This document shows positions 48,311 through 48,937 of a DNA stretch of 64,000 nucleotides, piece after piece. The translations under genes were made by a program, and so were the position numbers. The notes beneath the pieces were generated by a model that searched no databases, was not told the DNA's origin, and saw only the letters and a program-made list of their open reading frames with translations. Every line of letters begins with the position of its first letter. The first letter of the stretch is position 1. Origin of the DNA: Caldalkalibacillus uzonensis (GTDB lineage Bacteria > Bacillota > Bacilli > Caldalkalibacillales > Caldalkalibacillaceae); the NCBI RefSeq assembly GCF_030814135.1, contig NZ_JAUSUQ010000009.1, forward strand, positions 1 to 64,000, written 5' to 3'.

Positions 48311-48937
48311 TTGGAAAAAGATAATCGTAGTGAAGCTCTCACAGTGGAACAACTGGACCATGGTCCCCTCCCTTTTTGTGCTTCAAGAGACGATATGGCT
48401 CCCTTATTTACCGCTGAAGCATATGTAAATGAACAGATTCAAACAGTACGCCTGGAAGACTTGCGGGGATCGTGGACGGTTCTTTTTTTCTATGCGAGTG
48501 ATTTTACTTTCGTTTGACCGACCGAATTGGCAGCAGTTGCTGCTGTTTATCCGCAATTAAGAGCCTTAGGAGCCGAGGTATGGGGCATTAGCACAGATAG
48601 TGTGTACGCACATAAAGTGTTTAAAGAAATATCTCCTTCAGCCAGACAAGTACAATTTCCGCTGCTAAGCGACCGGAATCATCTTATTAGCCGTGCCTAC
48701 CGTGTATTGGATGAAAAAGCTGGCGCTGCATTTCGGGCAACTGTCATTGTGGATCCTGACGGCATGATTGTTGCCAAACTTATTTATCCACGCGAAGTAG
48801 GCCGAAACACCCATGAGATTGTTCGCCTCATCCAAGGCCTGCAATTCAGCCGTCAAACAGGCCTGGGTGTTCCAGCCAACTGGGTTCCAGGAATGTCCGG
48901 CATTCAAAGACAAACGGAAGACATTGGGAGAATTTGA
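48311..48937 (+). CDS. AhpC-type peroxiredoxin with in-frame TGA at the peroxidatic position (candidate selenoprotein)
   Basis: One continuous frame of 208 residues is interrupted only by TGA at codon 69 (48515-48517), in the motif DFTFV-TGA-PTE, where AhpC/Prx1 enzymes have the peroxidatic cysteine. Both sides are well-preserved peroxiredoxin (WTVLFFYASDFTFV; EVWGISTDSVYAHKVF; AAFRATVIVDPDG with the catalytic Arg; GVPANWVPG). The usual resolving Cys of the VCPANW motif is missing. The RNA after UGA folds as GCAGC-AGUU-GCUGC, with its loop 17 bases from UGA and G at loop position 2, fitting the bacterial SECIS rule. Selenocysteine insertion is the best reading; a nonsense pseudogene is the alternative. 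TTG start with GGGGTG upstream. Confidence 0.8.
48515..48545 (+). promoter_or_regulatory. Candidate bacterial SECIS element
   Basis: UGA, then 17 bases, then tetraloop AGUU closed by GCAGC/GCUGC with further G-U pairs below. Stem length, spacing and G in the loop match bacterial SECIS elements read by SelB. Confidence 0.6.

What the first reader, a model, noticed from the sequence alone, without database searches (positions are those of the whole stretch)
48311..48937. Peroxiredoxin with UGA in place of the peroxidatic cysteine and a SECIS-like hairpin: candidate selenoprotein in a Bacillales genome
Seen: a single uninterrupted frame except TGA at codon 69, inside DFTFV-x-PTE, exactly the catalytic Cys position. 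Coding similarity to AhpC-type peroxiredoxins continues for 139 residues afterwards. A hairpin with loop AGUU sits 17 bases after UGA. Known: selenocysteine peroxiredoxins exist in some anaerobes, and bacterial SECIS needs a short stem-loop with G early in the loop at about this distance. Inference: UGA is read as selenocysteine. The resolving Cys (VCPANW to GVPANW) and the usual Pro before the active site are also changed, suggesting a one-Sec enzyme that needs another reductant. Ordinary annotation would call it a pseudogene.
Basis: partly seen in the sequence, partly recalled or inferred. Interest (0 to 1): 0.93.

Follow-up and report, generated by a model that had tools for sequence, protein, structure and literature searches.

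The report
Bacillus-group peroxide-removing enzyme using selenium
A gene that looks broken by a stop codon in a Bacillus-like bacterium most likely makes an intact peroxide-destroying enzyme with the rare amino acid selenocysteine at its active site: more than 100 related genomes carry the same stop codon at the same place, and database entries often hold only the part of the protein after it.

Summary
The frame 48311-48937 is an AhpC-type peroxiredoxin interrupted only by UGA at codon 69, the peroxidatic position. This genome has selA, selB, selD and tRNA-Sec. Of 398 Bacilli genomes sampled 14 carry the gene, and of 193 genomes of one Bacilli family 96 do; every copy, read at DNA level, has UGA there, and every carrier has selA. 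Sixty-six distinct sequences keep a hairpin after the UGA whose silent-site pairs covary (G-C, A-U, C-G and U-A occur). It fits the published bacterial SECIS model, and third positions of its codons are unusually constrained. The one Cys-bearing relative listed nests inside the Sec clade and has lost the loop's Val codon. The resolving cysteine of AhpC is missing in all members compared and no other cysteine is universal, so a one-Sec cycle with an external thiol is inferred. Sec peroxiredoxins are known (PrxU of Clostridia); this clade scores far below the PrxU and AhpC curated cut-offs and often appears in databases as a stub. Sec insertion itself is untested.

The parts
48311..48937 (+). 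Sec-peroxiredoxin coding frame: TTG start, UGA at codon 69, 139 further codons, TGA stop
   Evidence: the C-terminal part is 139 aa in 73 of 76 family loci
48298..48303 (+). ribosome-binding-site-like GGGGTG, 7 nt before the TTG start
   Evidence: sequence; picked by the start scan
48515..48517 (+). in-frame UGA at the peroxidatic position, read as Sec by inference
48528..48545 (+). bacterial SECIS hairpin, conserved register: stem 48528-48535 with 48538-48545, innermost loop N1-G-U-N2 = AGUU at 48535-48538
   Evidence: fits the bSECIS model quoted from PMC13188914
48866..48883 (+). GVPANW: place of the resolving Cys of classical AhpC (VCPANW); no Cys here
47727..48293 (+). ferritin-like / rubrerythrin-type protein ending 17 bases before the Prx start; possible local operon, not among the neighbours shared by four or more relatives' loci

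Best explanation
The gene is an AhpC-type peroxiredoxin with UGA at its peroxidatic codon, and this UGA is most likely read as selenocysteine, directed by a covarying hairpin that begins at the 11th base after it and is predicted to bind SelB. Shown by calls: an open frame on both sides of the UGA; selA, selB, selD and tRNA-Sec in the same genome; UGA in every gene of this family read from the sampled Bacilli; silent-site covariation in the hairpin; no resolving Cys. Predicted: an AhpC fold. Inferred: SelB and Sec-tRNA(Sec) decode the UGA; the selenol attacks H2O2 or organic hydroperoxides and becomes a selenenic acid; as the C-terminal resolving Cys is missing and no Cys is universal, an external thiol (thioredoxin, a bacilliredoxin or bacillithiol) regenerates it, with Cys23 a possible helper in the members that have it.
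For: Machinery in the same genome. UGA conserved: 33 of 39 loci in named genomes, 14 of 14 carriers among 398 Bacilli genomes, 99 of 99 genes in 96 carriers among 193 genomes of one family; the two samples share two genomes, so 108 genomes in all. Co-occurrence with selA: 14 of 14 against 85 of 398 (hypergeometric 1.7e-10) and 96 of 96 against 172 of 193 (1.6e-7); these probabilities ignore shared ancestry. Hairpin: 66 distinct sequences, inner pair G-C 57, A-U 8, C-G 1, none unpaired; third pair outward from it G-C 32, A-U 30, G-U 3, U-A 1, none unpaired; covariation score 0.318 against 0.202 +/- 0.012 in shuffles (0 of 500) and at most 0.181 when slid; at least 4 and 9 changes of pair state on a protein tree. 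In all 99 genes the loop GU and both pairs are kept. Third-position entropy of codons +5 to +9 is 0.58-1.10 bits against 1.55-1.96 in the 21 conserved four-fold codons from +26 on. The one Cys-bearing member of the clade among 120 listed hits (P0011, Alteribacter keqinensis) nests inside the Sec clade (96/91) and has Met where all 66 aligned Sec members have the GUN codon of the loop. Coding constraint after the UGA: against L019, 59 synonymous and 28 non-synonymous codon differences in 139 codons. Fold: pLDDT 91.4, best PDB match Salmonella AhpC 4mab, TM 0.84/0.94.
Against: No direct evidence of Sec insertion. The single-sequence fold is not more stable than shuffles (z -0.82), and in this window an alternative register with loop UUG is as stable; for L048 and L081 too the minimum-energy fold differs from, or adds to, the conserved helix. 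Two of the five measures do not beat shuffles: pairs changed on both sides 206 of 500, further pair types 63 of 500. The two outermost pairs are unpaired in 10 and 2 of 66. The other genome held of the same genus has selA but no match, so the gene is dispensable. One species (L049/L082) has an apparent frameshift in its C-terminal part. P0011 is flagged as a long-branch row whose place is unsure; its DNA was not seen, nor whether its genome lacks selA.
Confidence: 0.95

Rival explanations
1. Pseudogene: the TGA is a nonsense mutation in an AhpC gene.
For: 86 of 120 listed hits are C-terminal stubs. One species, L049/L082, also has an apparent frameshift.
Against: The same codon is TGA in 99 of 99 genes of 96 genomes and 14 of 14 carriers of the class sample. 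Downstream frame 139 aa long in 73 of 76 loci and 125-140 aa in 99 of 99, with more synonymous than non-synonymous change after the UGA in the five comparisons made.
Confidence: 0.01
2. The UGA is read by a near-cognate tRNA as Trp, Cys or another residue, with no selenium; the hairpin only slows the ribosome.
For: 16 of 120 listed protein hits carry W at this place; the DNA of those 16 was not seen, so they are either UGA read as Trp by gene callers or true UGG.
Against: Every carrier genome sampled has selA: 14 of 14 and 96 of 96. The hairpin matches the bSECIS model and covaries. The position is the peroxidatic Cys of homologues, where Trp would be inactive (established enzymology).
Confidence: 0.02
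3. A Sec protein, but with another job: the missing resolving Cys and the altered active-site Pro suggest a thiol oxidoreductase or peroxide sensor rather than a bulk peroxidase.
For: No resolving Cys in 73 of 73 members and 99 of 99. Pro62 is Ala in the window, while other members have Pro, Ser, Gly or Thr. No widely conserved partner gene next door.
Against: The TxxU site, the conserved Arg142 and the predicted AhpC fold are kept. Clostridial PrxU, named a thioredoxin-dependent peroxiredoxin by NCBIfam, lacks the resolving Cys too (10 of 10 loci).
Confidence: 0.15

Closest known systems
PrxU, selenocysteine-containing peroxiredoxin (NCBIfam NF040737; E. acidaminophilum enzyme, Sohling 2001, seen here only as a reference in other papers)
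   Same: UGA at the same position in DFTFV-U; SECIS-like hairpin over the same codons (e.g. UCAGCAGUUGCUGA); C-terminal resolving Cys missing (10 of 10 loci); AhpC-type sequence
   Different: Score 160.6 against a cut-off of 270; PrxU forms its own clade (100/100; 100/99) apart from this one, though a single Sec origin is not rejected (AU p 0.108); the 10 PrxU loci read have their own N- and C-terminal extensions
AhpC, alkyl hydroperoxide reductase subunit C (TIGR03137; Salmonella AhpC 4mab)
   Same: Predicted fold, TM 0.84/0.94; active-site frame FTFVxPTE; Arg142
   Different: Sec codon instead of Cys; no resolving Cys (VCPANW to GVPANW); score 159 against a cut-off of 272
Bacterial selenoprotein 'Peroxiredoxin (Prx), TxxU' class of the reviews PMC9312934 and PMC13188914 (passages read)
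   Same: T66-x-x-U69 motif; a Sec peroxiredoxin in a genome with the Sec machinery
   Different: The window has Ala for the Pro of PxxxTxxU; the 2022 review files the class under COG1225 (Bcp), while this protein is of the AhpC type

Membership tests
Bacterial selenoprotein (SelB/SECIS type) | In-frame UGA at a redox-active position, conserved in homologues | tested here: met
   33 of 39 loci; 14 of 14 carriers; 99 of 99 genes
Bacterial selenoprotein (SelB/SECIS type) | bSECIS: 3-9 nt loop, G in its first two positions (N1-G-[G/U]-N-N2), 16-37 nt after UGA, MFE <= -7.5 kcal/mol (PMC13188914, passage) | tested here: met
   Loop AGUU with covarying N1-N2, 17 nt spacing; conserved register -9.3 kcal/mol. 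The window's MFE of -10.5 belongs to the other register
Bacterial selenoprotein (SelB/SECIS type) | selA, selB, selD and tRNA-Sec in the genome | tested here: met
Bacterial selenoprotein (SelB/SECIS type) | Selenium in the protein | not testable with these tools
   needs 75Se labelling or mass spectrometry
PrxU (NF040737) | Curated score cut-off of 270 bits | tested here: not met
   160.6 bits; 154.6 in the genome search
PrxU (NF040737) | Common descent with the PrxU clade to the exclusion of Cys AhpC | tested here: inconclusive
   Trees separate them; AU test p 0.108 does not reject one Sec clade
AhpC (TIGR03137) | Curated score cut-off of 272 bits | tested here: not met
   159 bits
AhpC (TIGR03137) | Peroxidatic Cys and C-terminal resolving Cys | tested here: not met
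   TGA at the first; no Cys at residues 186-187 in 73 of 73 members
Peroxiredoxin fold (Pfam AhpC-TSA PF00578) | Family score and fold | tested here: met
   123.2 bits, cut-off 26; predicted model pLDDT 91.4 and PDB matches
Prx TxxU class of the reviews | PxxxTxxU motif | tested here: inconclusive
   T66-x-x-U69 present; Pro is Ala62 in the window but Pro in other members, e.g. L025, L034, L038, L042, L045, L047

The most novel reading that the evidence does not exclude
Bacilli harbour a second, independently evolved lineage of AhpC-type selenocysteine peroxiredoxins, separate from clostridial PrxU. It runs a one-Sec cycle without a resolving cysteine, probably recycled by bacillithiol or thioredoxin, and it stays hidden because gene callers cut it at the UGA in over a hundred genomes.
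Probability: 0.3. Interest if true: 0.65.

Novelty: new member of a known kind. Interest (0 to 1): 0.5.

Why it matters
Clostridia and Deltaproteobacteria are the groups named as selenoprotein-rich in the 2016 survey (PMC5029168, passage). Here an antioxidant selenoenzyme is traced through Halalkalibacter, Salipaludibacillus, Fictibacillus, Ammoniphilus, Cytobacillus, Neobacillus, Mesobacillus, Schinkia and Alicyclobacillaceae, and the 108 sampled carrier genomes all have selA. No NCBIfam model reaches its cut-off on it, so the protein often enters databases as a headless stub or with Trp at the site. A curated model with the UGA would repair such records. The one-Sec design, the likely Sec-to-Cys reversal in Alteribacter and the absence of the gene from sampled genomes without selA make a test case for what Sec buys a peroxiredoxin in bacilli.

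Tried and rejected
Rejected: pseudogene and non-Sec read-through (see rivals). Energy alone as evidence for the hairpin: not significant, so the case rests on comparison. A conserved operon partner: the upstream ferritin-like gene is not in any neighbour group of four or more loci; the commonest neighbour groups cover 14 or fewer of 34 loci. Independent Sec origin from PrxU: suggested by the trees, not proven (AU p 0.108). Cys23 as a universal resolver: Cys in only 47 of 76 rows by fixed offset. Literature: paper searches listed no title or abstract describing this clade in Bacillales. The library lacks most subscription journals, and the listings are capped. PMC5029168 counts 78 organisms with Sec Prx without naming them in the passages I read, and PMC1794560 counts 3 Bacillales selenoprotein families, so some members may already have been counted. 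Of the papers I saw only the passages returned by 'find' (PMC13188914, PMC5029168, PMC1794560, PMC9312934, PMC8533274, PMC7409299); the rest were seen as search listings.

Rows dropped: my motif script missed L089 (1 of 30 loci); one search read it with the rest. The hairpin counts and the trees use the loci fetched, which hold 31 of the 99 genes (29 of its own 30 loci plus L076 and L077); the other genes were read or 96 only. Duplicates and the frameshifted L049/L082 were left out of the trees. One search used 15 of the 17 full-length Cys rows in the listing (P0116 and P0120 left out). Searches used 24 of 66 window-type Sec rows, chosen by hand for spread, and 14 Cys rows of that listing. One search left out four long-branch rows. 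In one search the L117 item was the wrong stretch and is not used. Only the 120 best of 480 protein hits were listed.

Full report
Observation. The window holds a frame at 48311-48937 (+) that is open except for TGA at codon 69. It starts with TTG behind GGGGTG, 17 bases after a ferritin-like gene. With TGA read as Sec the protein has 208 residues and matches AhpC-TSA across the TGA. The TGA stands where AhpC has its peroxidatic Cys.

Machinery. The genome G000 (53 contigs, 100% complete) has selA at C5:210742-212106, selB at C5:140933-142807, a tRNA-Sec with anticodon TCA at C5:143908, 1.1 kb from selB, and selD at C9:182097-183026 with its own in-frame TGA in GG-U-GCK.

Relatives. A scan of named genomes gave 39 loci. 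In 33 of 39 the relative is of this family with TGA at exactly this codon; 3 (L050, L053, L054) have Cys; L055 and L056 (Terriglobia) are PrxQ-like with TGA at the matching place; L057 is a thioredoxin-type protein. In a class sample of 398 Bacilli genomes 14 had the gene at E <= 1e-45, all with one TGA, which the DNA of the 13 others places at this codon; all 14 are among the 85 genomes with selA. In one unnamed Bacilli family of 193 genomes 96 had the gene at E <= 1e-40, with 99 copies. I read all 99 as DNA: TGA at this codon in 99 of 99, loop GU in 99, the two silent-site pairs kept in 99, no Cys in the two places before PANW or its variants in 99 (C-terminal part 139 aa in 85 of 99, 125 to 140 aa over all). 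All 96 genomes are among the 172 with selA. G254 and G095 are in both samples, so 108 carrier genomes in all. Chance of such overlap, ignoring kinship: 1.7e-10 and 1.6e-7. The 13 genomes of one genus without selA, G560-G572, have no copy. Four of the 99 copies were flagged with a second stop; all four stops sit in the last few codons. The other genome held of the same genus, G001, has selA but no match.

Hairpin. Sixty-six distinct sequences align without gaps from the codon before the UGA. The hairpin 48528-48535 / 48538-48545 encloses N1-G-U-N2. N1-N2 is G-C in 57, A-U in 8 and C-G in 1; the third pair outward from it, also between two silent sites, is G-C in 32, A-U in 30, G-U in 3 and U-A in 1; the two outermost pairs are unpaired in 10 and 2 of 66. 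The covariation score exceeds all 500 shuffles and all slid versions, while two of the five measures do not separate from shuffles (206 and 63 of 500 reach them). RNAalifold finds the same helix but leaves N1-N2 in the loop. On a protein tree these states changed at least 4 and 9 times. Third-position entropy in codons +5 to +9 is 0.58 to 1.10 bits, against 1.55 to 1.96 in the 21 conserved four-fold codons from +26 to +137; codons -1, +1 and +2 are also low, 1.05 to 1.24. The design fits the bSECIS model in PMC13188914, section on prokaryotic SECIS elements (passage). Folding energy alone is no evidence, and the window's own minimum-energy fold uses a register 3 nt away.

Reversal. Among the 120 listed hits the only full-length one with Cys and this clade's C-terminus is P0011 of Alteribacter keqinensis. 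It nests inside the Sec clade (96/91), though it is flagged as a long branch, and has Met in place of the loop's Val codon, so the loop's leading G is gone by the code. Its DNA and its Sec genes were not seen.

Enzyme. The predicted model (pLDDT 91.4) has the AhpC fold; the top PDB hit is Salmonella AhpC 4mab, TM 0.84/0.94. No Cys stands at residues 186-187 in 73 of 73 members, and no column after the Sec is all Cys. Position 23 is Cys in 47 of 76 rows by fixed offset. The catalytic cycle (selenol to selenenic acid, then an external thiol) is inference from established peroxiredoxin chemistry; the reductant is unknown.

Known relatives. NCBIfam scores are 160.6 for PrxU (cut-off 270) and 159 for AhpC (cut-off 272). 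PrxU itself is over its cut-off in 48 of 398 Bacillota genomes, and all 48 matches carry at least one in-frame TGA; 10 of 10 PrxU loci read have it at the same place, lack the resolving Cys and keep a hairpin over the same codons. The window clade, with further Sec relatives L130-L137 from the phylum search, is separate from PrxU on the trees, yet one Sec origin is not rejected (AU p 0.108).

Databases. Of 120 listed protein hits (480 found), 86 are C-terminal stubs, 16 full-length with W, 15 full-length with Cys and 3 other (of the 3, P0105 and P0107 are also Cys, P0076 reads D). Names such as 'redoxin domain-containing protein' are given to stubs.

Verdict. A real selenoprotein gene with very high likelihood, of a known kind, in a clade without a curated model.

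Noticed in passing
L007:1498-2004 (-), own genome C13:98476-98982: A second peroxiredoxin (DWTPV-UGA-GAQM) in the same genome has TGA at its peroxidatic place. 28 of 398 Bacilli genomes carry it; all 29 copies show one in-frame TGA, and all 28 genomes are among the selA carriers. Four copies read have it at this place. 10 of the 29 are flagged with a further TAA or TAG; the one read (L147) has it in the last codons. It is below every NCBIfam cut-off.
   Followed up: partly
39213-46837: A 28-base exact repeat of the tRNA-Val 3' end recurs at 46810-46837: likely ends of an integrated element of about 7.5 kb that stops 890 bases before the ferritin-like gene.
   Followed up: partly
51445-51576 (-): c-di-AMP riboswitch (ydaO/yuaA type, 108.9 bits) upstream of a TrkA-like gene (50692-51366) and a TrkH-like gene (49307-50650) on the same strand.
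   Followed up: no
47727-48293: Rubrerythrin/ferritin-like protein with weak similarity to encapsulin cargo EncB (37.7 bits, cut-off 90), 17 bases before the Prx; not in any neighbour group of four or more relatives' loci.
   Followed up: partly
own genome C9:182097-183026 (L065): SelD is itself a candidate selenoprotein, TGA in GG-U-GCK.
   Followed up: no
L055 and L056, from 5001: Terriglobia PrxQ-like proteins with TGA in DFTGG-UGA-TTEL and, by eye, a hairpin with loop GGUU soon after.
   Followed up: no
48665-49258 (-): The reverse strand just downstream of the Prx reads like an amidase fragment (AVTRSVRDSAALLDATAGPAPGDPY; name recalled, no search), perhaps a gene remnant.
   Followed up: no
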